The notes beneath the pieces were generated by a model that saw nothing but the letters and a program-made list of their open reading frames with translations, was not told the DNA's origin and made no database searches. DNA of 51,142 nucleotides from a virus, in the IMG/VR virus record IMGVR_UViG_3300033552_000014, positions 1 to 51,142 of that record. One strand, 5' to 3'. A program made the translations under genes and the position numbers. This document shows, piece after piece, positions 3,180 to 23,084 of the stretch (positions within the stretch are counted from its first letter, which is position 1; each line of letters starts with the position of its first letter).

Positions 3180-4381
3180 AATTGGTAACTCGCGAAAAAG
3201 ACATCCATCATTGTATTAGAATTAGTGTGAAAGTCATAAGAACCCACTTCTTCAGGGTATTGTACCATAATGCTGCCAGCAGCGTAACCATAAAATGCGC
3301 TGTAAGTGCTACTGCTGACATTCATAAATCGACCCATAAAGGTTAAAGGTCCTCCTTTTCCTCCAGGTACACTGTAAGAAGTATAAGTGGCAACCCCACT
3401 AATAGAATGTATATTGTTGATGCATACACCCTGATTAGCGCTCCGGCTAAATGCAACGCTATGATAATTGGCAAAAGTTCTATTTGCTTCTATTGTTAAA
3501 TAAGGGCTTACTACAGAAACTGCATAAAAATTTGGAACAAAAGACCCAGAGTCAAAAACTTTACCCCCACTAGCATTAAACACTCTCATACCGTAGTTTT
3601 CAGTAGGTACGTAAACTGGTACCTCATCAGATACAATAAAATAAGAAAAAGAATAAGTGTTACTTTGATAAGCCCCTACGCCTTTTACACCTTCATCTAC
3701 AAACGTAGCAGCCGCTACTATTGATGCTCCAATAAATAAACCGTTTGCGTCGCGTAGCATGTAGTTCATTGCTATCATGCCAGACGAAGCGGTAATAAAA
3801 ATTAACGGCGGCTGATTATACGGCTTGTCAAAAATAATATTAGCATCTATGTTTTGGGTGTAAGTAGAAAATGTAGCTTCTCCAAATGAAGACGGAACAA
3901 CTAAAGATGATGCCGTTCCTGTTCGAATTTTAGATCCGGCAGAATTTGGGTGTACTGTGTAAACTCTGTAAGCATCAGATATAGCAAGTTGACCGGCGTT
4001 AGCTCCTCTAGCCATAAATCCGTAATTGCCAAAAGTAGGGGGTACTCCAAAAGTATGTACAAAAGTTGCGTTTGCAGTAATTACAGGATAAGGCCACTCT
4101 AGATTGGTTTTAGTTAAAACTCTTGCGCTGGGAGGGTAATAATTCAAACCTCCACTTGCAACAGATCCGCCTAAACTAAAATGATCTGTAATTAAATTTT
4201 TATGAAAAGTAACGGGCGCTAAAGGAGTTGATATTCCAAAGCTTGTGGGGAAACCGTCAACAGGAATATTGACAACAGAAGAAGAATATATACCTGTATT
4301 TTTATGGAATACACCGTTTATTGACGGCGAATGCAGTAAAAAAGCTCCTGCGGCATCTTTGGTAAGTATACCGTAACTCAT
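3176..4381 (-). CDS. DUF6453-like tail-associated protein
   Basis: 401 residues, beginning MSYGILTKDAAGAFLLHSPS, rich in Ser, Asn, Tyr and Gly with alternating hydrophobics typical of beta-rich tail or adhesin proteins. The MSYG start and repeated beta pattern recall DUF6453, found near host-specificity proteins of siphophages. It is coupled to the DUF4376-like gene. It may contribute to receptor binding or tail-tip decoration; I see no enzymatic motif. Confidence 0.55.
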   Translation of the reverse strand: MSYGILTKDAAGAFLLHSPSINGVFHKNTGIYSSSVVNIPVDGFPTSFGISTPLAPVTFHKNLITDHFSLGGSVASGGLNYYPPSARVLTKTNLEWPYPVITANATFVHTFGVPPTFGNYGFMARGANAGQLAISDAYRVYTVHPNSAGSKIRTGTASSLVVPSSFGEATFSTYTQNIDANIIFDKPYNQPPLIFITASSGMIAMNYMLRDANGLFIGASIVAAATFVDEGVKGVGAYQSNTYSFSYFIVSDEVPVYVPTENYGMRVFNASGGKVFDSGSFVPNFYAVSVVSPYLTIEANRTFANYHSVAFSRSANQGVCINNIHSISGVATYTSYSVPGGKGGPLTFMGRFMNVSSSTYSAFYGYAAGSIMVQYPEEVGSYDFHTNSNTMMDVFFASYQL

Positions 4382-11462: not shown

Positions 11463-11472
11463 TATTTCGTAC

Positions 11473-11501
11473 TTGACCCTAAGCCTTAATAACTGTATAA
11501 T
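11473..11501 (+). promoter_or_regulatory. Sigma70-type promoter
   Basis: TTGACC (11473-11478), 17-bp spacer beginning CTAAGCCT, TATAAT (11496-11501). Shares the TTGACCCTAAG string with four other promoters here. Confidence 0.8.
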
Positions 11502-11528
11502 ATAGGCTACACACTATAAAATACCCTA

Positions 11529-12542
11529 ATGTTTAACCAAAATATTCAACGCATTGGCTTTGCTTGTAAAATTCAAATTGCAGAGTCTAAAGCAGACCCT
11601 AAACTTAATCAAACTGGCACTACTATTAAATGGCTTACTGCGCAAACTCAAGATCGCGCACGTGAGCGCTTGTGGGATTTAATGCGCAGCAACGTAGCAG
11701 CCCTAGCCGCTCAAATTGAGTGGGTAGGTTCGCTACCACCTAATCAACGTATGTTCCGCATTACCAGCGACCTGTTAACCGCATACAGCCACGAAGCGTG
11801 GATGCCCTTCTACTTTCAATCAGACGTAGAACACTTTTTAGAAACCAACCTACGAAAAATCGGCAATCGTGCCAGAGAACTAGACATTAAACTGAGTTTC
11901 CACCCCGGCCAGTTCTGCGTATTAGCTAGTGACCAACCTCATGTTGTAGAAAACTCTATAACAGAGTTTGAGTACCACTGTGACCTTATACGCTATATGG
12001 GGTATGGGCGCGAGTTTCAAGACTTTAAGTGTAACGTACACGTAGGTGGCAGATTAGGTCCACCAGGTATTCGCGCAGCACTAAAACTGCTTACTCCTGA
12101 AGCGCGTCGTTGTTTGACTATTGAAAATGCCGAGTTTACCTGGGGCTTAGACGCTAGCCTAGAACTAGAGCGGGACTGTGCTTTGGTGCTTGACATACAT
12201 CACCACTGGATTAACAGCGGCGGCGAGTACATTAAGCCCACAGATAGCCGGTTTCAACGTGTTGTTGCGTCATGGCGCGGTGTTCGTCCTACTATTCACT
12301 ACTCCTTATCGCGAGAAGATATACTTGTAGACCATGACCCCCTTGTTTGTCCAGACCTTGTTAAACTAAAAGCCTCGGGGCTTACCAACGCTAAACTGCG
12401 TGCGCATTCAGAATACTACTGGAATCAAGCATCTAATGCTTGGGCTCTTTCATTTTTGCCACACGCAGATATTATGTGTGAAGCAAAACAAAAAAACTTA
12501 GCCGCTCAACAGTTAATAGATCAACTAAAATTTCTGGCTTGA
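11529..12542 (+). CDS. uvsE: UV-damage endonuclease, UvsE/UVDE family
   Basis: 337 residues. The opening RIGFACKIQ, the ..LSFHPGQFCVLAS.. block (HPGQF at 125-129), the ..EFEYHCDLIRYMG.. block, NVHVGG, IENAEF and LDIHHHW are the metal-binding TIM-barrel motifs of UvsE. The enzyme nicks DNA 5' of UV photoproducts and starts excision repair without UvrABC. The TGA stop is part of the TTGAAA -35 box for the next gene. It gives the phage its own repair of UV lesions. Confidence 0.9.
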   Translation: MFNQNIQRIGFACKIQIAESKADPKLNQTGTTIKWLTAQTQDRARERLWDLMRSNVAALAAQIEWVGSLPPNQRMFRITSDLLTAYSHEAWMPFYFQSDVEHFLETNLRKIGNRARELDIKLSFHPGQFCVLASDQPHVVENSITEFEYHCDLIRYMGYGREFQDFKCNVHVGGRLGPPGIRAALKLLTPEARRCLTIENAEFTWGLDASLELERDCALVLDIHHHWINSGGEYIKPTDSRFQRVVASWRGVRPTIHYSLSREDILVDHDPLVCPDLVKLKASGLTNAKLRAHSEYYWNQASNAWALSFLPHADIMCEAKQKNLAAQQLIDQLKFLA

Positions 12543-16214: not shown

Positions 16215-16218
16215 CATT

Positions 16219-16347
16219 ATGAAAAAATTATACACCCCAACATATAAATCTTATTTGCTATTTGTAAAAAGAAAAAACAGGGATATGGTACTTATTTGGC
16301 TAAAAAAGGCGTTTTGCAAGTCTTTGGTTTTTGATCGCGGAGAGTAG
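16219..16347 (+). CDS. Possible 42-aa basic peptide directly after tRNA-Thr
   Basis: The ATG lies 4 nt after the tRNA CCA, with no ribosome site; the 42 codons begin MKKLYTPTYKSYLLFVKRKN. After 3' processing of the tRNA the mRNA would be leaderless. Basic with hydrophobic stretches. Real status uncertain. Confidence 0.45.
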   Translation: MKKLYTPTYKSYLLFVKRKNRDMVLIWLKKAFCKSLVFDRGE

Positions 16348-16357
16348 TTTTTCAAAC

Positions 16358-16386
16358 TTGAATAGTTAACTCTTTCGCCGTATAAT
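16358..16386 (+). promoter_or_regulatory. Sigma70-type promoter
   Basis: TTGAAT (16358-16363), 17-bp spacer, TATAAT (16381-16386), upstream of the acidic 78-aa gene. Confidence 0.75.
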
Positions 16387-16411
16387 TAATACTTAAACAG
16401 GAAAAAGCAAA

Positions 16412-16648
16412 ATGAAATCAATCTATTATGTAATTACTGACAGTGGCGATGGTGCTAACTATATTGAGTGGCATAAAACCATGTCCGCAGAAAAGATAGC
16501 TAAACTAGAGTCTGAGGATGAGTATGGTAGATACTCTTCAGGTGACGGATTTCAGTGTACGGAGCTAAAGTTTCCTGATGATTTTGATGTTGAAACTTTT
16601 GCTGAAACGAACCACATTTATTGGTTTGAAGACGAGCAAAAAATTTAA
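16412..16648 (+). CDS. Hypothetical acidic 78-aa protein
   Basis: 78 residues, MKSIYYVITDSGDGANYIEW onward, rich in Asp/Glu and aromatics. It begins like the 92-aa protein at 12575 (short beta strand, then G..W), so the two may be related. AGGA precedes the start. Unknown function. Confidence 0.65.
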   Translation: MKSIYYVITDSGDGANYIEWHKTMSAEKIAKLESEDEYGRYSSGDGFQCTELKFPDDFDVETFAETNHIYWFEDEQKI

Positions 16649-16649
16649 C

Positions 16650-16678
16650 TTGACCCTAAACTGTATTTATTGTATAAT
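16650..16678 (+). promoter_or_regulatory. Sigma70-type promoter
   Basis: TTGACC (16650-16655), 17-bp spacer beginning CTAAACTG, TATAAT (16673-16678), right after a stop codon. Confidence 0.8.
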
Positions 16679-16697
16679 TATCTTTTAAGGGATAATT

Positions 16698-16811
16698 ATG
16701 ACTCAAATACAGTATCGGAATAACATTATCAACACACTAATGGTTTTAGGCAGCTTGTCATACGCTCAAGCAGCACATATGTATTATTGCCTTAGAAATT
16801 ACACTAAATAG
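16698..16811 (+). CDS. Hypothetical 37-aa peptide
   Basis: 37 codons beginning MTQIQYRNNIINTLMVLGSL, with AAGGGA before the start and its own promoter. The next ATG follows 1 nt after the stop. Unknown function. Confidence 0.55.
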   Translation: MTQIQYRNNIINTLMVLGSLSYAQAAHMYYCLRNYTK

Positions 16812-16812
16812 T

Positions 16813-16944
16813 ATGAAACTAGCCTTTGTTTTCCAAGCGTTTGGCGGTTTACCCGTTGACGCAGTCCCGGTAGTTATCCCCTTTGCTCAGTGGCATGAAG
16901 CTGCTAATTACGAAGAGTTTACTAATCTGCCACAAAAAAGTTGA
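16813..16944 (+). CDS. Hypothetical 43-aa peptide
   Basis: 43 codons beginning MKLAFVFQAFGGLPVDAVPV; hydrophobic N-terminal half, but too short and proline-broken for a confident membrane span. Coupled to the 37-aa frame; the promoter for the next gene begins at its stop. Confidence 0.5.
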   Translation: MKLAFVFQAFGGLPVDAVPVVIPFAQWHEAANYEEFTNLPQKS

Positions 16945-16945
16945 C

Positions 16946-16974
16946 TTGATGTTTCAATAACAATTTGTTATAAT
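16946..16974 (+). promoter_or_regulatory. Promoter with leaderless output
   Basis: TTGATG (16946-16951), 17-bp spacer, TATAAT (16969-16974); the ATG at 16982 follows 7 nt later. Confidence 0.75.
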
Positions 16975-16981
16975 TAATACT

Positions 16982-17149
16982 ATGAATAAAATTGAAAAAC
17001 AACTGCTTAGAACTCTAAATAAAGCGCTTGCTAATCAAGACGAGCACCCACTATCTAATTCAGCTAACAGAGAAGTCAAAAAAGCCGAGTCTGCTCTTGC
17101 TCACTATATTAGCGAACCAGAGTTGTACTTGGACTTAGAAACACTATGA
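16982..17149 (+). CDS. Hypothetical 55-aa protein
   Basis: 55 codons beginning MNKIEKQLLRTLNKALANQD; helical and soluble. ATGA overlap with the next gene. Probably leaderless. Confidence 0.6.
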   Translation: MNKIEKQLLRTLNKALANQDEHPLSNSANREVKKAESALAHYISEPELYLDLETL

Positions 17150-17322
17150 CTTTTCCTTCAATTTTAACCGGATTTTTAATAACTATTTGGCTAGTAGGTA
17201 TTGTACTAGCTAAAGGCTTCTGGATGACCTTACTAGCAATTACTATTCCTTTTGTGGGTATGTACCTTGCAGTAGAAGCTTACCTAATTCCCTTACTTAA
17301 CAAATTGATTACACTGCTATGA
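17146..17322 (+). CDS. 58-aa two-span membrane protein
   Basis: 58 codons beginning MTFPSILTGFLITIWLVGIV, with two hydrophobic segments (about 5-22 and 26-45) joined by AKGFW. Overlaps both neighbours by 4 nt, so it is translated in a coupled set. A small inner-membrane protein; holin-like size, but no evidence of lysis function. Confidence 0.6.
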   Translation: MTFPSILTGFLITIWLVGIVLAKGFWMTLLAITIPFVGMYLAVEAYLIPLLNKLITLL

Positions 17323-17507
17323 AAATTCATGAAGCAATTGCTATGCTAGAGCAAATGGACCAAAACAAAGAGTGTACAGTTACATTTGGTCAGCCTAAAA
17401 GTATTTTCCCGTATCCGGGAACGCCTTTTCAAAACCACCGCTACTACCCTCCAGTAGGGCCGCCTACCTTCCCAAATTTTTTACCAGGTACTATAACCTG
17501 TCATTAA
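17319..17507 (+). CDS. Hypothetical 62-aa protein with Pro-rich tail
   Basis: 62 residues: a short N-terminal domain (MKIHEAIAMLEQMDQNKECT, then VTFG) common in tailed phages, followed by a Pro/Tyr/Phe-rich tail (YYPPVGPPTFPNF). ATGA overlap with the membrane protein. Unknown function. Confidence 0.6.
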   Translation: MKIHEAIAMLEQMDQNKECTVTFGQPKSIFPYPGTPFQNHRYYPPVGPPTFPNFLPGTITCH

Positions 17508-17508
17508 T

Positions 17509-17643
17509 ATGAAAACACGAAAACAAACGCTAGTGCCGCGAAACCCCTTCGCTGTACTAGCTTCGAAAAGAAAAGCGGGTAGTCATCGCAAGCCTCATAA
17601 GGCCGAGCGCGGTGCCCTAAACCGTGAAGGTTGGGATAGTTAA
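17509..17643 (+). CDS. Small basic phage protein (44 aa)
   Basis: 44 codons beginning MKTRKQTLVPRNPFAVLASK, then a basic RKAGSHRK..KAERG segment. The VPRNPF..A...KAG.H.K pattern is a widespread small phage protein family of unknown function. It ends with a TAA directly abutting tRNA-Lys. Confidence 0.65.
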   Translation: MKTRKQTLVPRNPFAVLASKRKAGSHRKPHKAERGALNREGWDS

Positions 17644-17717
17644 GGGATTAAAACTTTAAAGTGAAGTAACTGGCTTTTAACCAGTAAAATTAGGGGCAGT
17701 ACCTAATAGTCCTACCA
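17644..17717 (+). tRNA. tRNA-Lys (TTT) with aberrant T and D loops
   Basis: Acceptor GGGATTA/TAGTCCT, anticodon stem ACTGG/CCAGT with loop CTTTTAA (TTT), T stem TTAGG/CCTAA, discriminator A, CCA. The T loop is GGCAGTA rather than TTCRANT, and the D loop lacks the usual GG, so the elbow contacts must differ. All stems pair well, which argues for a functional but altered tRNA. Confidence 0.8.
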
Positions 17718-17815
17718 TATTTAAGTAATTTAACGGGCACTTACTTAGCTCGGTGACTTTGACGAGTTGCGAAACCCAAGCGTCAACTTGGATAGATTAA
17801 ATTACTTAAATATGG
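17715..17815 (+). ncRNA. CCA/TGG trailer hairpin of tRNA-Lys
   Basis: CCATATTTAAGTAATTTA (17715-17732) pairs perfectly over 18 bp with 17798-17815, ending in TGG. The 65-nt interior contains TTGACG..CGTCAA around GTTGCGAAACC. Confidence 0.8.
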
Positions 17816-17917
17816 TCAGAGTTACTGAAACGACAATACGTCCAGGCAGTTAAGTTGTGCCTTATATTAAGACTTCTAAGACGGTGTTAAGTATCATCAA
17901 GTAAATAACTCCTACCA
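17816..17917 (+). ncRNA. tRNA-like or decayed tRNA ending in CCA
   Basis: About 100 nt between two trailer hairpins. GAGTTA near its start pairs with TAACTC near its end, followed by CT, A and CCA, as in a tRNA acceptor. I cannot assign a clear anticodon or T arm. Either a decayed tRNA or a tRNA-mimic RNA. Confidence 0.4.
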
Positions 17918-18020
17918 TATTTAAACACATTGTGACGAGTTTAATACAAGTTAAGCCTTCGAAAAGCTTAGCTCCGCTATTAACGGTAGTCTGTGGCCAC
18001 AGCAATGTGTTTAAATATGG
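17915..18020 (+). ncRNA. CCA/TGG trailer hairpin
   Basis: CCATATTTAAACACATTG pairs perfectly over 18 bp with 18003-18020. It shares the CCATATTTAA start with the previous trailer but encloses different sequence (70 nt, with AAGC..GCTT and GTGGCCAC). Confidence 0.8.
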
Positions 18021-18074
18021 TCAGAAGGAGTAATTAGCCTTTCGCCAGACTCGGAGTCATGACCCGAAGAACTC

Positions 18075-18139
18075 CGCAATCGTCTAGTGGTTAGGACACC
18101 CCGGTGAGGGTAAACGTAGGTTCGACTCCTGCTTGCAAT
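18075..18139 (+). pseudogene. Degenerate tRNA-Glu-like sequence
   Basis: TCGTCTAGTGGTTAGGACA is the D region of tRNA-Glu, and GTAGGTTCGACTCCTGC is an intact T arm. About five bases are missing from the anticodon arm (CCC CGGTGA GGG, a 3-bp stem with 6-nt loop) and no CCA follows. Probably a pseudo-tRNA; a functional tRNA-Glu lies at 30416. Confidence 0.6.
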
Positions 18140-18146
18140 GAGTTCG

Positions 18147-18268
18147 CATATTTATAGACTTTAGACGGCCTTAATGTACAAAATACCTTACATTATTAGT
18201 CGGTAGGCTGACACCTGCGAAACAATTACGTTGTCAGACGTAGTTAATATTTAAAGTTTATAAATATG
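18147..18268 (+). ncRNA. Long-stem fold 5' of tRNA-Gln
   Basis: CATATTTATAGACTTTA pairs with TAAAGTTTATAAATATG (17 bp, one G-U). Inside, CTGACA..TGTCAG encloses CTGCGAAAC, echoing TTGCGAAAC in the tRNA-Lys trailer. Confidence 0.65.
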
Positions 18269-18274
18269 TTTTAT

Positions 18275-18348: not shown

Positions 18349-18496
18349 ATATTCTTTAGCAATAAAGAATTCCTATGCGAGTTGATGGTAAGTAACTCTC
18401 GCTGTAAATGTCATGTTTAGTGTTTACGCTAACTTGCGCAACCATCTTTAAAATCAAGTTACACGATCGGGCCTAGGACTACCGATCACTAATTAT

Positions 18497-18575
18497 TCCG
18501 TAGAATCCGAGCCAGGTGCACGGACGTGACTGTTAATCACTGACTAGATAGGTTCGAGTCCTATCTACGGAGCCA
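18497..18575 (+). tRNA. tRNA-Asn (GTT)
   Basis: Acceptor TCCGTAG/CTACGGA perfect, D arm TCCG..CGGA, anticodon loop CTGTTAA (GTT), T loop TTCGAGT, discriminator G, CCA. The 148 nt before it (18349-18496) hold only stems such as GATGGT..ACCATC. Confidence 0.88.
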
Positions 18576-18686
18576 GTATATCCTTATGTTAAGCAGGTTA
18601 AGCGCTACCTTTGGCCTATGAACGGTCTTGCTAATAGTTGGTAAATGTGTGCATCAACGTACACCTTAGGGGCCATAAATTTAGAC

Positions 18687-18716
18687 TTGATAGTCTAGTA
18701 TTTTTTACTGTATAAT
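18687..18716 (+). promoter_or_regulatory. Sigma70-type promoter (18-bp spacer)
   Basis: TTGATA (18687-18692), 18-bp spacer, TATAAT (18711-18716), ahead of the D5-like 96-aa gene. Confidence 0.7.
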
Positions 18717-18735
18717 TATCTTTTAAAGGCACTCA

Positions 18736-19026
18736 ATGGCTACAAAGTTTATTTATACAGATACAGAGCTAGCAGAAATCATCGCTAAGTATAACGCAGA
18801 TATTAGTTTAGAAGTTCTTGCCCAAGAATATAATAAAAGTGTTGCTAGTGTACGCATGAAACTTGTAAAACAAGGCGTATATAAAAAAGCAGCATTGCCA
18901 GTAAAAACTACTAAAGCAACCGACACGCTCCCACAATTTGAAAAGTTTCAAATAGCCACAACTAAATCAGGTATTCTTGCACAGTTTAATAGTGCCCTTA
19001 AGGCAGTTGGTCCGGCACTACTATAA
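18736..19026 (+). CDS. D5-family helix-turn-helix protein, short paralogue
   Basis: 96 residues. The N-terminal half, YTDTELAEIIAKYNADISLE followed by VLAQEYNKSVASVRMKLVKQ, reads as a helix-turn-helix; the SVRMKLVKQGVYKK end matches GVRMILVQSGDYVKK of the protein at 30562 and units of the D5-like protein at 35701. T5 D5 is an abundant DNA-binding early protein. This paralogue probably binds DNA as well. Own promoter, AAGG before the start. Confidence 0.7.
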   Translation: MATKFIYTDTELAEIIAKYNADISLEVLAQEYNKSVASVRMKLVKQGVYKKAALPVKTTKATDTLPQFEKFQIATTKSGILAQFNSALKAVGPALL

Positions 19027-19058
19027 ACATCAAACTATCAAGTTTTAAAAATTTAGAC

Positions 19059-19087
19059 TTGATAGTTCTCTGTATTTATTGTATAAT
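19059..19087 (+). promoter_or_regulatory. Promoter for TROVE leader RNA
   Basis: TTGATA (19059-19064), 17-bp spacer, TATAAT (19082-19087). Transcription would start near 19094, about 500 nt before the TROVE start codon. Confidence 0.75.
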
Positions 19088-19105
19088 AGATACTTATTCG
19101 GAAAT

Positions 19106-19371
19106 AATATAATTAAACACTGATATGTAGTGAAGGTTATTAGCAAAGACTTTTTGTCTTAAAAAGGTATACGATGTTTGTACTAGCTAATATTAACCAC
19201 AGTTACTTCATTATACTGTAAATAGTCGTACGGTAAACAAATTCCGTCGTGCTTTACCCTAGTAGGATACTGCATTAGTACTATAACCAACTCGCTTTCT
19301 GGCATTACGAGTTTAAACATAAGGTCAGAGCACTGTAGACGATCAATCTCTTGTTAGTGTTTAATTATATT
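19106..19371 (+). ncRNA. Candidate TROVE-associated RNA: 266-nt closed fold
   Basis: AATATAATTAAACACT (19106-19121) pairs perfectly over 16 bp with 19356-19371, enclosing 234 nt. Internal stems include GGTTATTAGC with GCTAATATTAACC, AGAC..GTCT, GGTAAA..TTTACC and AACTCG..CGAGTT. The 5'/3' end-pairing, its promoter and the adjacent TROVE gene suggest a Y-RNA-like partner or a regulatory leader. It has no tRNA CCA end. Confidence 0.5.
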
Positions 19372-19598
19372 GTAACGTGTGATAAGAACACATTAATATT
19401 TTACATTGAAGTAAATCTTAGCCCAGCATCTGGATAGATGTAAAACGTACCCTTTTATTTCGTAGCGACATTAGACAGTTACTTCTTTTCTATTACAAAA
19501 AACCTAGTCGGTTCGATTCCGGCGTGCCTAGTGGTCATGGTGGCAATACCTGTTTTACCTATTCTCGAAATTTTCCCAATTAAAACTAAAGCAAATTA
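19372..19598 (+). other. TROVE 5' leader remainder with isolated T arm
   Basis: About 227 nt, no credible frame. GTCGGTTCGATTCCGGC near 19509 is a perfect tRNA T arm followed by GTGCCTA, but no matching acceptor or anticodon arm lies upstream, so it is a tRNA fragment or mimic. No strong ribosome site precedes the TROVE ATG. Confidence 0.4.
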
Positions 19599-20879
19599 AT
19601 GTCTTCACTTAATCGCATCAATCAAACTCAATCGCCATCCCAAGTTACTCCTGAAAAGCAGCTCCGCAGACTAGTTATGTCTGCAATGCTATGGGAAAAG
19701 CAGTTCTACATTGATGGACAATCAGTTGCAGAAGCTATCAAAGCTCTGGTTCCTTTAGTTAATCCAAATGTTGTAGCAGTATTAGCTATGCAAGCTCGCG
19801 GCGACTATAAGCTGCGTCATATGCCTTTGCTGTTGTGCCGCGAACTAGCGCGCAGCGGTATGTTGCCATGGAAAGTGCTAAATGAAGTTATTCAGCGTCC
19901 AGACGAAATGTCTGAGTTTCTGGCTATTTACTGGCTAGAAGGGCGCACAGCTCTTAGCAACCAAGTAAAGAAAGGTATTGCTGCTGCTTTTGGTAAGTTC
20001 AATGAGTATTCCCTAGCTAAGTGGGATAAAAACTCCGCAGCTATTAGCTTGCGCGATGTAATGTTCTTGACTCACCCTAAGCCGCAAAACCCAGAACAAG
20101 AAGCTTTGTTTCACCGTGTAGCTAATAAGGATCTTAAAACACCAGATACCTGGGAGACAGAACTCTCTAAGGGAGCAGATAAGGCCAAAACCTTCACTCG
20201 TCTTATGGCCGAGAAAAAACTGGGTGCTCTTGCGTTCCTGCGTAACCTACGTAACATGCTAGAAGCTGGCGTTAGTGCCACGGCTATTAACAACTACTCT
20301 ATTAGTGTTGACGTTGCGCGAGTTCTGCCTTTTAGGTATGTTGCAGCTGCTCGTATTGTGCCAGCAATGGCCCCAATGCTAGAAGCCATGATGGTGCGCT
20401 CGCTTAAGGAAGCCCCTAAGCTCAGTGGGCATACCGCACTATTAGTAGACGTGTCTGGCTCAATGTTTGGCACTAAAATTAGTGCCAAATCCGATCTTGA
20501 CCGATTTGACGCCGCCGCCGCTTTAGCAATGCTTTGCAAAGAAGTTTGCGAAAACGTTGATGTGTATACCTTCTCCAATAGTTTAGTTAAAGTTGACGGT
20601 GTAAGTGGCTTTGCAATGATTAATGCCCTTAAAAACAGTCAAAATAACGGCGGTACAGCTTTGGGTATGGCTATTCGTAACCTTCCTCGAGAATACGGTC
20701 GTTTGATTGTATTTACAGACGAACAAAGTCAAGATGCTGTAGGCGCTGCTCCAGCAGAAAAATCTTACATCATTAACGTTGCTGCCAATAAAAACGGCAT
20801 AGAGCACGCTAGTTATACAAAGATTGATGGCTTCTCAGAGGCTGTTATTGACTACATTCGTGAAAGCGAAAAAGAATAA
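19599..20879 (+). CDS. TROVE-vWA protein (Ro60 / Rsr-like RNA-binding protein)
   Basis: 426 residues. Residues about 15-270 form the all-helical TROVE ring domain (..LRRLVMSAMLWEKQFYIDG.., ..VNPNVVAVLAMQARGDYKLR.., ..LRNLRNMLEAGVSATAI..). Residues about 278-420 are a von Willebrand A domain with a complete MIDAS: DVSGS (284-288), T353 and D374. Ro60 proteins bind Y RNAs on the ring surface and RNA 3' ends in the hole, and act in RNA quality control and degradation. It is shorter than most bacterial Rsr proteins (about 500+). It lies inside the tRNA array between structured RNAs, and its stop codon is the first base triplet of a tRNA-like fold. Confidence 0.92.
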   Translation: MSSLNRINQTQSPSQVTPEKQLRRLVMSAMLWEKQFYIDGQSVAEAIKALVPLVNPNVVAVLAMQARGDYKLRHMPLLLCRELARSGMLPWKVLNEVIQRPDEMSEFLAIYWLEGRTALSNQVKKGIAAAFGKFNEYSLAKWDKNSAAISLRDVMFLTHPKPQNPEQEALFHRVANKDLKTPDTWETELSKGADKAKTFTRLMAEKKLGALAFLRNLRNMLEAGVSATAINNYSISVDVARVLPFRYVAAARIVPAMAPMLEAMMVRSLKEAPKLSGHTALLVDVSGSMFGTKISAKSDLDRFDAAAALAMLCKEVCENVDVYTFSNSLVKVDGVSGFAMINALKNSQNNGGTALGMAIRNLPREYGRLIVFTDEQSQDAVGAAPAEKSYIINVAANKNGIEHASYTKIDGFSEAVIDYIRESEKE

Positions 20880-20959
20880 GTGAGTAAGTTGGTGGTACGT
20901 AAGAGATAGATATCTCTGAGGACCGGGATTCCAGAAGGCGCAAACAACGCCATCACTTA
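20877..20959 (+). ncRNA. tRNA-like RNA starting at the TROVE stop codon
   Basis: TAAGTGA (20877-20883, TAA being the TROVE stop) pairs with TCACTTA (20953-20959), a 7-bp acceptor-like stem. Inside are AGAGATA..TATCTCT and, at the T-arm position, GGCG CAAACAA CGCC. No CCA follows. Bacterial Y RNAs are known to carry a tRNA-mimic module, so this is a Y-RNA candidate. Confidence 0.45.
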
Positions 20960-20960
20960 G

Positions 20961-21020
20961 TAAGATGTGCTAAACTTGTGAAGGTATTACGTAAGTAATA
21001 CTGGAGGTACCCACATCTTA
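20961..21020 (+). ncRNA. Stem-loop RNA downstream of TROVE
   Basis: TAAGATGTG pairs with CACATCTTA (9 bp), then a 14/10-nt internal loop, then GTATTAC GTAA GTAATAC. The end-paired stem, internal loop and terminal hairpin layout is like a minimal Y RNA. Function inferred only. Confidence 0.45.
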
Positions 21021-21388
21021 CATATACCTGCTAGATGTGGTAATGCTCTTGCCTAGGCTAACCACTATTAAACTAGACGTAACCAGCCGTGAAAAGGTAG
21101 TATCCGAGACTGACCTCTCAAACTAAAACATTCTTAGTCAGCTTGTTTTATTACACACGCTCTAAAGGTAGTCAGCCCTTGCCCAAAGTTGTGACTCTAA
21201 GTCTCACAAGGACTTAGATAAGTATATGGTGATAAGATTAGATACTTCTTCTGGTAAAAACTCTAATCTTGATTTGTTCCTATACTTATCTTAGTCCTTA
21301 GCGAATTTGACTGTTACTTCCGCTCACATTGGAAGGCCCTTGATACGGCCTTAATCACAGTTAATAATATATTCTAGGATTTCTTTTA
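21021..21388 (+). ncRNA. Structured region before tRNA-Ser with 17-bp stem at 21210-21297
   Basis: Gene-free 368 nt. GGACTTAGATAAGTATA (21210) pairs over 17 bp (one mismatch) with the segment ending at 21297, enclosing a second hairpin AAGATTAGA..TCTAATCTT. Upstream, GACTGAC and TAGTCAG can also pair near 21110-21140. No promoter or frame seen. Confidence 0.5.
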
Positions 21389-21475
21389 GGAAGATGTGCT
21401 GCAAGGTGCGGCAGAGGTTTGCTAAACCTCCGTTCAGAAATGGGCCGATAGGTTCAATTCCTATATCTTCCGCCA
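21389..21475 (+). tRNA. tRNA-Ser (GCT)
   Basis: Acceptor GGAAGAT/ATCTTCC, anticodon stem GAGGT/ACCTC with loop TTGCTAA (GCT), long variable arm, T loop TTCAATT, discriminator G, CCA. Confidence 0.9.
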
Positions 21476-21481
21476 AATAAT

Positions 21482-21556
21482 GCCCGTTAGACCGAATGGT
21501 GAGGTAGCGTCTTGATAAGGCGTTTGCAGGTGGATCGTAACCACCAGCGGGTACCA
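21482..21556 (+). tRNA. tRNA-Ile (GAT), altered T loop
   Basis: Acceptor GCCCGTT/AGCGGGT, anticodon loop TTGATAA (GAT), T stem GGTGG/CCACC with loop ATCGTAA instead of TTCRANT, discriminator A, CCA. The 115 nt after it hold stems such as TCTGG..CCAGA and TTTTGTAGT..ACTACAAA. Confidence 0.82.
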
Positions 21557-21671
21557 AGTTTTGTAGTCTGGTGATTAGCCAGATAAAGGCGTTGCGGGTA
21601 GTTCATAGCAACCAATAAAAATCGAAGCGCAACTTAATAATAATGTGTGCAGCCTACTACAAATTAAATAT

Positions 21672-21748
21672 GGCTCAGTAGCTCCAATTGGTAGAGCAGG
21701 GGATTCCAAATCCTTGTGTTGGTGGTTCGAGTCCATCCTGGGTTGCCA
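21672..21748 (+). tRNA. tRNA-Trp (CCA)
   Basis: Acceptor GGCTCAG/CTGGGTT, anticodon loop TTCCAAA (CCA), T loop TTCGAGT, discriminator G, encoded CCA. Confidence 0.88.
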
Positions 21749-21758
21749 AATAATTTAT

Positions 21759-21787
21759 TTGAATTATTTATCAAATTTTGTTATAAT
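21759..21787 (+). promoter_or_regulatory. Sigma70-type promoter
   Basis: TTGAAT (21759-21764), 17-bp spacer, TATAAT (21782-21787), between tRNA-Trp and the 67-aa gene. Confidence 0.75.
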
Positions 21788-21804
21788 TAATCTTTAGGAA
21801 ATAA

Positions 21805-22008
21805 ATGATTAATAGAAAAGAGCTAATCTTAGTTCCGGCATACGGGCATAAATACGATAGCAAAGAGGCTATGATTAAAGGCTGGGTTACCGGAAAAGAC
21901 TTTAGAATTATTACCGGCTCTTATTGCTCAATAAGAGATATTAGTCGGCTAAAAAACAAATCTACTGTAATTACTATATCGCAAGATTTGTTTAATTATG
22001 TAGTATAA
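21805..22008 (+). CDS. Hypothetical 67-aa protein
   Basis: 67 residues, MINRKELILVPAYGHKYDSK onward. The ILVPAYG.KY.S...M..GW..GKDF.I pattern is a small phage protein type of unknown function. AGGA precedes the start. The tRNA-Met follows 5 nt after its stop. Confidence 0.65.
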   Translation: MINRKELILVPAYGHKYDSKEAMIKGWVTGKDFRIITGSYCSIRDISRLKNKSTVITISQDLFNYVV

Positions 22009-22013
22009 AATAC

Positions 22014-22087
22014 CGCGGGTAGTGTAGCCAACAATTCGGTCTCATAAGCCAGAATCATCGGAGGTGCGAATCCTTCACCCGCTACCA
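22014..22087 (+). tRNA. tRNA-Met (CAT), possible initiator
   Basis: Acceptor CGCGGGT/ACCCGCT with a C-T mismatch at the first pair, a feature of initiator tRNA; anticodon loop CTCATAA (CAT); T loop TGCGAAT; discriminator A; CCA. The D arm is poorly formed and the anticodon stem has one mismatch, so the assignment to initiator is tentative. Confidence 0.75.
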
Positions 22088-22092
22088 AAAAT

Positions 22093-22182
22093 GGAAGAGC
22101 AACCCAATTGGCGATGGGACCGGTCTTGAAAACCGTCGAGTTAGAAATAGCCTTGAGAGTTCAACTCTCTCCTCTTCCGCCA
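22093..22182 (+). tRNA. tRNA-Ser (TGA)
   Basis: Acceptor GGAAGAG/CTCTTCC, anticodon loop CTTGAAA (TGA), long variable arm, T loop TTCAACT, discriminator G, CCA. Confidence 0.9.
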
Positions 22183-22267
22183 TAATTATACGCTGTGGGT
22201 AACTAGAGTGCGCACATAACAATGAACTAGAGTTCGAGCAATCGAACCTCAGAGCGTATAATTATGG
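22180..22267 (+). ncRNA. CCA/TGG trailer hairpin of tRNA-Ser(TGA)
   Basis: CCATAATTATACGCT (22180-22194) pairs perfectly over 15 bp with 22253-22267, ending in TGG. The 58-nt interior contains GTTCGAGCAATCGAAC. Confidence 0.8.
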
Positions 22268-22378
22268 TGTTTTACAGAAGCTACAATGGAACACCGATAG
22301 TTTATACCAAACCTATAGTACGGTATAAACAGGCCATGAAGACGGGCTTCCTCAGATTCAAGTACTGAGTAAGACACC
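22266..22378 (+). ncRNA. 113-nt tRNA-like RNA
   Basis: GGTGTTTTA pairs with TAAGACACC (9 bp, one G-U) as an acceptor-like stem. Inside are GTTTATACC..GGTATAAAC (9 bp, 13-nt loop), GAAG..CTTC, and CTCAG ATTCAAGTA CTGAG in the T-arm position, then TTTTG. No CCA. Candidate tRNA mimic of the Y-RNA type. Confidence 0.45.
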
Positions 22379-22388
22379 TTTTGTTTAT

Positions 22389-22462
22389 GCCGGGTTGGCG
22401 GAGTGACTACGCTGTTGGCTGCAACCCTTCACAGGCTGGTTAGAATCCAGCACCCGGTTCCA
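22389..22462 (+). tRNA. tRNA-Cys (GCA)
   Basis: Acceptor GCCGGGT/ACCCGGT, discriminator T as required for tRNA-Cys, anticodon loop CTGCAAC (GCA), T loop TTAGAAT, CCA. The anticodon stem has two T-T mismatches. The ClpP-like start codon lies 4 nt beyond the CCA. Confidence 0.82.
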
Positions 22463-22466
22463 CTTT

Positions 22467-23084
22467 ATGAAAGCAGCGATGATCAAAGCAGATAAATTTA
22501 ATACACTATTTGGCAGTGGTATTCCGGGAATGATTGAGCCTAAGGCTTCTTCTCATGTACATGAGTTCTATATTTCAGGAACCCTTGACAGCCCAGAAAA
22601 TTATATTGAGTGGTTTGATACTATTCGACACTGCAAACCAGAAGATACTGTAAAGATTTATATTAATAGCTACGGCGGTGATATGTTTACAGGTATTCAG
22701 TTTATGCGCGTATTAGCAGAAACTGAAGCCTTAGTTATCTGTAGTGTTGAAGGTGCATGTATGAGTGCCGCCACTATGATCTTTTTATGTGCAGACCAAT
22801 TTGAAGTAACTCCACACTCCATGTTTATGTTTCACAATTATTCTGGTGGAACCATGGGTAAGGGTGGCGAAATGTATGGTCAAATTCAGCATGAGCGTAA
22901 GTGGTCAGAACAACTACTTAAAGAAATTTACGAAGACTTCCTTTCCCCTCAAGAAATTCAATCACTATTAGATAACAAAGATTTGTGGATGGACGTAGAT
23001 GAAGTAGTCCTGCGCATGGAGTCCCGCTCCAAAGTCTTACACGCACTAGCAAATGAACAAGATACTACTGACATTACTAATTAG
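22467..23084 (+). CDS. ClpP-family (S14) serine protease
   Basis: 205 residues with the ClpP core: YINSYGGDMFTG (oxyanion region), VEGACMSAAT with Ser100 as nucleophile, and MFHNY with His123; an acidic residue in ..NKDLWMD.. probably completes the triad. ClpP forms a barrel protease fed by ClpA/X chaperones; a phage copy may replace or redirect the host enzyme. The GACMSA motif differs from the usual GxASSxA. The ATG is 4 nt after the tRNA-Cys CCA and has no ribosome site. Confidence 0.88.
   Translation: MKAAMIKADKFNTLFGSGIPGMIEPKASSHVHEFYISGTLDSPENYIEWFDTIRHCKPEDTVKIYINSYGGDMFTGIQFMRVLAETEALVICSVEGACMSAATMIFLCADQFEVTPHSMFMFHNYSGGTMGKGGEMYGQIQHERKWSEQLLKEIYEDFLSPQEIQSLLDNKDLWMDVDEVVLRMESRSKVLHALANEQDTTDITN

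What the first reader, a model, noticed from the sequence alone, without database searches (positions are those of the whole stretch)
19059..21297. Phage-borne Ro60 (TROVE) gene flanked by tRNA-like and end-paired RNAs: a candidate Y-RNA system
Seen: a complete TROVE-vWA protein (MIDAS DVSGS, T353, D374). Its promoter gives a leader of about 500 nt with a 266-nt fold closed by a perfect 16-bp stem. Its stop codon TAA opens a 7-bp acceptor-like stem of an 83-nt cloverleaf (20877-20959), and a second end-paired stem-loop follows at 20961-21020. Known: bacterial Ro60 proteins work with Y RNAs, some of which carry a tRNA-mimic module. Inferred: these RNAs are the partners, used on host or phage tRNA fragments. 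I did not find the classical Y-RNA Ro-binding sequence with confidence.
Basis: partly seen in the sequence, partly recalled or inferred. Interest (0 to 1): 0.9.

Follow-up and report, generated by a model that had tools for sequence, protein, structure and literature searches.

The report
Phage Ro60 with several Y RNAs
This virus of bacteria carries its own copy of the Ro60 RNA-binding ring protein together with several small RNAs built on one shared stem, to which different pieces (some of them tRNA mimics) are attached; the same protein-RNA pairing recurs in most of the related phages examined.

Summary
ORF 19599-20879 is a Ro60/TROVE protein. The best-supported partner RNAs are three co-oriented copies of one chassis at 19457-19571, 21213-21294 and 21293-21381: P1, bulged U, 2 bp, YG, P2, UUACUUC, variable module, P2', UUGUU, 2 bp, P1'.

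Compensatory change supports the chassis: with anchors chosen by sequence alone, the first four P1 pairs all form in 69% of 182 elements, against 6% with re-dealt partners. It lies beside 71 of 82 TROVE loci, never antisense, often in several copies. A sequence-only search for the RNA returned TROVE in 88 of 92 viral matches. Modules are short loops, T-arm hairpins or circularly permuted tRNA mimics.

This is a divergent branch of YrlA-type Y RNAs, below Rfam's curated threshold, with several exchangeable modules per phage. Binding and function are inferred. New variant of a known kind.

The parts
19599..20879 (+). TROVE-vWA (Ro60-like) protein, 426 aa
   Evidence: Pfam PF05731 E 5e-11; phrog_850 E 1e-35; profile matches 9l5y/9kop E 1e-48, 1yvp 1e-9, 2nvo 1e-8; AF2 model pLDDT 84.8 matches 9kop TM 0.77, Rsr 2nvo 0.64, Ro60-Y RNA 1yvp 0.61
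19059..19087 (+). sigma70-like promoter of the leader and TROVE (TTGATA-17-TATAAT)
   Evidence: 11 of 12 consensus matches; consensus match only
19457..19571 (+). Y-RNA chassis copy B with a 64-nt module: T-arm (GUCGG UUCGAUU CCGGC) plus a second hairpin UGCC/GGCA
   Evidence: Descriptor score 39, null maximum 35; homologs L002, L003, L004, L005, L007, L008, L252 with compensatory changes in both hairpins (TGCC/GGCA, TGGC/GCCA, TGTGCA/TGCACA); not found by the CM and no MFE excess over shuffles
21213..21294 (+). Y-RNA chassis copy C with a short 14-nt module
   Evidence: CM E 2e-9, but this copy was one of 60 training sequences; fold z -4.1; descriptor 55, null maximum 35; syntenic copies in L001-L005, L009, L022, L032
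21293..21381 (+). Y-RNA chassis copy D, tandem with C, 37-nt module
   Evidence: Descriptor 42, null maximum 35; syntenic second copy in L001, L004, L005, L008, L022, L032; CM weak, E 0.7
19106..19371 (+). Leader RNA closed by a perfect 16-bp stem; possibly a degenerate or variant chassis copy
   Evidence: Stem in the MFE fold; UUGUU directly before the 3' strand; partial CM hit at 19199-19219, E 0.49; the corresponding RNA in L001 (9787-9957) is a chassis copy; block 19291-19335 is 91% identical in L009/L012
20877..20959 (+).
   Evidence: z -1.9; 33-nt conserved core in L009/L012; 2 compensatory changes in the outer stem by eye, but a different MFE fold there
20961..21020 (+).
   Evidence: z -3.5; no blastn match in the loci held

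Best explanation
The locus makes a phage Ro60 ribonucleoprotein. Shown: TROVE is accompanied by several co-oriented RNAs with one covarying chassis (P1, bulged U, 2-bp step, YG, P2, UUACUUC, module, UUGUU), and the module at its tip is exchangeable (short loop, T-arm plus hairpin, or circularly permuted tRNA mimic). Inferred: the chassis helix with the bulged U docks on the outer surface of the TROVE ring, as the bulged C of known Y RNAs does on Ro60, while the module either recruits a partner nuclease or tRNA-handling factor or gates the ring. The phage would then own a set of Ro60 particles with different effector ends, most likely used for handling structured or damaged RNA (tRNA above all) during infection. 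The confidence given is for 'these RNAs are the Ro60 partners'; for the effector role of the modules it is about 0.4.
For: Covariation: all 18 pairs show double changes; covariation score 0.795 against 0.226 in shuffles and about 0.2 when slid. With anchors chosen by sequence alone, all of the first four P1 pairs form in 69% against 6%, and at least 7 of 8 P2 pairs in 66% against 16%, when re-dealt. Association in both directions: 71 of 82 TROVE loci have at least one copy, 43 at least two, 25 at least three, none antisense; the RNA pattern alone returned TROVE in 88 of 92 viral matches, and 10 of 11 records without it in the fetched stretch carry it elsewhere. Null: no shuffle hits at the threshold in 6 x 491 kb. 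Rfam YrlA sub-threshold hits fall on tRNA-type copies: L014 1e-8, L015 7e-8, L033 2e-8, L036 4e-6. Un-permuting makes 60 of 124 modules ARAGORN tRNAs, against 2 as they stand and 1 in the control. A bulged C is the primary Ro60 site in Y RNAs (PMC4030889); Microcystis phage Mvi-JY20 has a bulged C and GACGAAG. The TROVE model has the Ro60/Rsr fold.
Against: No binding or expression data. Rfam's curated YrlA threshold is not reached. Copies B and D in the window are weak one by one (no CM hit and CM E 0.7; copy B does not fold better than shuffles). More distant phage TROVEs (phiLo, HGTV-1, Neville, VanLee, RHph_TM30) show no convincing chassis within 2.5-3 kb. No RtcB in 14 records and RNA ligase above cut-off in only two, so an RNA-repair role is not supported by gene content.
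Confidence: 0.82

Rival explanations
1. The chassis elements are cis-regulatory leader structures through which TROVE controls its own mRNA, not separate small RNAs.
For: Most copies lie 0-700 nt upstream of TROVE on the same strand, and the window leader shares the TROVE promoter.
Against: Copies also lie downstream (41 against 111 upstream): in crAss001 all three are downstream, as are copies C and D here. Up to seven strict copies per locus and tRNA-mimic modules are unusual for a leader.
Confidence: 0.12
2. The tRNA-mimic modules are decoys that absorb host tRNA-targeting nucleases or modifying enzymes, with TROVE only stabilising them (compatible with their being Y RNAs; a rival on function).
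For: Modules are tRNA mimics; competitive inhibition of an anticodon nuclease by YrlA has been proposed (PMC7790460).
Against: The anticodon loop is opened and replaced by the chassis, so it should not be a substrate for an anticodon nuclease; many modules are short loops without any tRNA mimicry.
Confidence: 0.2
3. The partners are the reader's cloverleaf and hairpin just after the stop codon.
For: Both fold; the outer stem of the cloverleaf has two compensatory changes in L009 by eye.
Against: No chassis; the cloverleaf homolog is confined to one clade and has a different MFE fold; the hairpin has no homolog.
Confidence: 0.06

Closest known systems
YrlA / bacterial Y RNA (Rfam RF02553; Chen et al. 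2014, cited via PMC12282133)
   Same: End-paired stem, tRNA-like module with T, D and acceptor arms and no anticodon loop, gene beside a Ro60 homolog; Rfam hits at E 1e-8 on the best copies. Y RNAs in mycobacteriophages were already reported.
   Different: Below the curated score (52 against 69); bulged U, UUACUUC and UUGUU signature; many copies per locus; modules that are not tRNA-like.
Ro60/Rsr-Y RNA-PNPase machine (RYPER) of Deinococcus radiodurans
   Same: Ro60-fold ring with Y RNA (2nvo TM 0.64); there the tRNA-like module binds PNPase (PMC8394870).
   Different: No evidence here for a nuclease partner; the phage has several Y RNAs.
Ro60 of Thermus phage phiLo (PDB 9l5y, 9kop)
   Same: Phage Ro60, closest solved structure (TM 0.72-0.77).
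   Different: About 25% identity; no chassis found within 2.5 kb of its gene.
Candidate Rsr and Y RNAs of Listeria phage CKA15 (PMC12282133)
   Same: Phage Rsr-like protein near abundant non-coding transcripts proposed to be Y RNAs.
   Different: Speculative there; not compared with the chassis here.

Membership tests
Ro60/TROVE protein family | TROVE domain | tested here: met
   PF05731 42.8 bits, cut-off 23; phrog_850 full length
Ro60/TROVE protein family | Helical-repeat ring plus vWA domain | tested here: met
   AF2 model; Foldseek 9kop, 2nvo, 1yvp
Ro60/TROVE protein family | Binds Y RNA | not testable with these tools
   needs a binding assay or pull-down
Y RNA | 5' and 3' ends paired in a stem | tested here: met
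   P1 covariation
Y RNA | Conserved bulged cytosine in the Ro60-binding stem | tested here: inconclusive
   a bulged base at that place is conserved, but it is U in 179 and C in 3 of 182; the search pattern asked for T or C there
Y RNA | Encoded with a Ro60 homolog | tested here: met
Y RNA | Discrete small RNA bound and stabilised by Ro60 | not testable with these tools
   needs RNA-seq and pull-down
YrlA (Rfam RF02553) | Reaches the curated gathering score of 69 bits | tested here: not met
   best 51.6 bits, L014; no hit in 18400-22500 of the window at E 5
YrlA (Rfam RF02553) | tRNA-like module (T, D, acceptor arms) | tested here: inconclusive
   met for many relatives; window copy B has a T-arm and a second hairpin but no canonical D arm, C and D have none
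tRNA (for 20877-20959) | Recognised by ARAGORN or the Rfam tRNA model | tested here: not met

The most novel reading that the evidence does not exclude
A modular phage RNP platform: one Ro60 ring served by a set of Y RNAs with a common docking stem and exchangeable tips derived from different tRNAs by circular permutation, so that one protein is given several RNA-defined specificities.
Probability: 0.4. Interest if true: 0.85.

Novelty: new variant of a known kind. Interest (0 to 1): 0.7.

Why it matters
Why phages keep Ro60, and what Y RNAs do for it, is open. The chassis gives a searchable signature for the partner RNAs in cultured phages (CcrColossus, crAss001, Xanthomonas phage Olaya, Brevundimonas phage Kikimora), so binding, expression and deletion tests can be made directly. 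Some copies are at present annotated as tRNAs, most not at all.

Tried and rejected
Classical Ro-binding sequence (GNCGAA..G with UUGACC, from my own knowledge): no such pair beside TROVE in the window; several UUGACC copies in the window look promoter-like. Rfam scan of the window: only tRNAs above threshold, no YrlA even at E 5. A looser descriptor gave too many chance hits (173 at 48 or more in 2 Mb of shuffled sequence) and was used only together with synteny; window hit 16362-16699 of that scan was rejected as chance. A first sequence-only test had a spacing error in its pattern and found one element; it was corrected. CM R1 was built from sequences chosen by the descriptor, so its hits on those are not independent; one search is the control. 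RNA-repair partnership: no RtcB in 14 records, RNA ligase above cut-off in two. The key Y-RNA papers (Chen 2014, Sim and Wolin 2018, Sim 2020, Wang 2018) are not held, so I could not check how much of the phage diversity or multiplicity they already describe. The pattern (TAGTGT...) was less specific: 19 of 84 matches with TROVE in the stretch.

Full report
THE PROTEIN. ORF 19599-20879 encodes a 426-aa TROVE-vWA protein (Pfam TROVE; phrog_850). A profile of 16 relatives reaches the solved phage protein 9l5y/9kop (E 1e-48), the Ro60 entry 1yvp (1e-9) and Deinococcus Rsr 2nvo (1e-8). The predicted model (pLDDT 84.8) matches 9kop (TM 0.77), Rsr (0.64) and the Ro60-RNA complex 1yvp (0.61). D284, S286, S288 and D374 are invariant among the relatives. 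The threonine of the GGT motif is replaced in L011, L013 and L015. The window is a virus record with 24 ARAGORN tRNAs and phage replication genes (DnaB-like helicase, DNA polymerase, NAD-dependent DNA ligase, SbcCD, 5'-3' exonuclease).

The 16-bp stem (19106-19121 with 19356-19371) and the two folds after the stop codon are in the sequence. The leader as a whole does not fold better than shuffles (z -1.4). The cloverleaf is marginal (z -1.9) and the hairpin significant (z -3.5). The cloverleaf has a homolog only in L009/L012; by eye its outer stem keeps pairing there through two double changes, but the MFE fold of the homolog is different. The hairpin has no homolog among the loci held.

THE CHASSIS. 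Reading the flanks of TROVE in relatives showed a recurrent element: P1, bulged U, 2 bp, YG, P2, UUACUUC, module, P2', UUGUU, 2 bp, P1'. A strict descriptor found 71 hits on the + strand and 2 on the - strand (some fetched loci are not oriented by TROVE), with none in six Markov shuffles of 491 kb (threshold 38, null maximum 35). In one search, where loci are oriented by TROVE, no copy is antisense. The window has three copies: 19457-19571, 21213-21294 and 21293-21381. The second is strong (fold z -4.1; CM E 2e-9, though that copy was in the training set). The first and third rest on structure plus syntenic homologs. Copy B aligns with seven homologs whose T-arm and second hairpin change on both sides; in two of the eight sequences the automatic parse of one hairpin is poor (L003 T-stem, L005 second hairpin).

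STRUCTURE IS SUPPORTED BY COVARIATION. Because the descriptor asks for pairing, I repeated the test with anchors chosen by sequence alone: 182 elements from 103 loci. The first four P1 pairs all form in 69%, against 6% (maximum 10%) when 3' arms are re-dealt. At least 7 of 8 P2 pairs form in 66%, against 16%. On a 60-sequence alignment all 18 pairs show double changes; the covariation score is 0.795, against 0.226 in shuffles and about 0.2 for slid controls. The paired percentages in that alignment are inflated by the selection.

ASSOCIATION WITH TROVE HOLDS IN BOTH DIRECTIONS. Of 82 distinct TROVE loci with enough flank, 71 have at least one copy, 43 at least two and 25 at least three: 111 copies upstream, 41 downstream, 8 inside the open frame as defined stop to stop, none antisense. 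These 82 include loci that were fetched through the RNA pattern, so the share is biased upward; among the 24 listed loci fetched through TROVE itself, 20 have a strict copy. In the other direction, the 22-nt pattern TGGYGTAGNNNNCGGTTACTTC retrieved 77 IMG/VR stretches. Of its 92 matches, 88 have TROVE on the same strand in the fetched stretch, as do 53 of 54 with structural support. In GTDB genomes, 9 of 12 structure-supported matches have TROVE in the stretch; three structure-positive loci without it (L125, L139, L167) have it elsewhere in the genome. Over 11 records where it was missing from the stretch, 10 have it elsewhere; the exception is a 27-kb fragment.

MODULES. There are 261 distinct inserts with lengths clustered at about 15-45 and 60-90 nt. 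Of 124 with a T-loop-like motif, 60 are called tRNA by ARAGORN once un-permuted, against 2 as they stand and 1 of 124 in a control with the T-arm kept and the rest shuffled. So many modules are circularly permuted tRNAs opened at the anticodon loop; YrlA is described as having the D, T and acceptor arms of tRNA on a basal stem (PMC8394870). Single loci mix types: L007 has seven strict copies, Xanthomonas phage Olaya four, and CcrColossus four strict and eight with the looser scan. In three records an annotated tRNA lies inside a chassis copy: 10KY502B tRNA-Thr, Kikimora tRNA-Ser and CcrColossus tRNA-Gln.

RELATION TO KNOWN Y RNAs. Rfam YrlA hits tRNA-type copies at E 1e-8 to 1e-2 but never at its gathering score. 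The best known Ro60 contact is a bulged C in the stem (PMC4030889). Here the bulge is U in 179 and C in 3 of 182; Microcystis phage Mvi-JY20 has C followed by GACGAAG. Prior mentions of phage TROVE or Y RNAs exist. The original Y-RNA papers are not held, so the novelty of multiplicity and module exchange is my best reading, not checked against them.

MECHANISM. Shown: co-occurrence, chassis structure, exchangeable modules, Ro60 fold. Inferred: docking through the bulged-U helix, and modules as effector or gating ends. Whether the particle degrades, protects or sorts RNA is not determined. RNA repair is not supported by gene content, with the caveat that the records are fragments.

Noticed in passing
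L002 4092-4495, L003 13872-14303, L004 8825-9206, L007 8530-9309, L008 21100-21311: Permuted tmRNA genes in the tRNA arrays of the related phages; none called in the window.
   Followed up: no
window about 21160-21180; L001-L005, L008 just upstream of the downstream chassis copy: A recurrent short hairpin with GTAGTCAGCC in its loop precedes the downstream Y-RNA copy; no known family recognised.
   Followed up: no
L007 about 4260-4340 and L008 about 11470-11540: Shared non-coding sequence CTAAACTAAGAAGCGA...GAAAGCCTTAGGGAAGGGG after TROVE; no Rfam match at E 0.05.
   Followed up: partly
window 19291-19335: Leader block 91% identical to L009/L012, outside any strict chassis copy; function unknown.
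   Followed up: no
window 22093-22179: tRNA with a long variable arm found by Rfam (38 bits) but not by ARAGORN.
   Followed up: no
window 17644-17725: In the 2-kb gap 16215-18274 an 82-nt block resembles L009/L012, and 25 nt are identical to part of the tRNA-Lys of L003: possibly an undetected or broken tRNA-Lys.
   Followed up: no
L040 2795-2862, L035 2769-2843, L036 2107-2174: tRNAs annotated in public phage records lie inside Y-RNA chassis copies, so they are probably mis-annotated permuted modules.
   Followed up: yes
L008 18496-18691: Group I intron (Rfam 60.7 bits).
   Followed up: no
window about 11470, 12855, 16650, 44507: Repeated ACTTGACCCTAA motif, often just after a stop codon, possibly a phage promoter element.
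   Followed up: no
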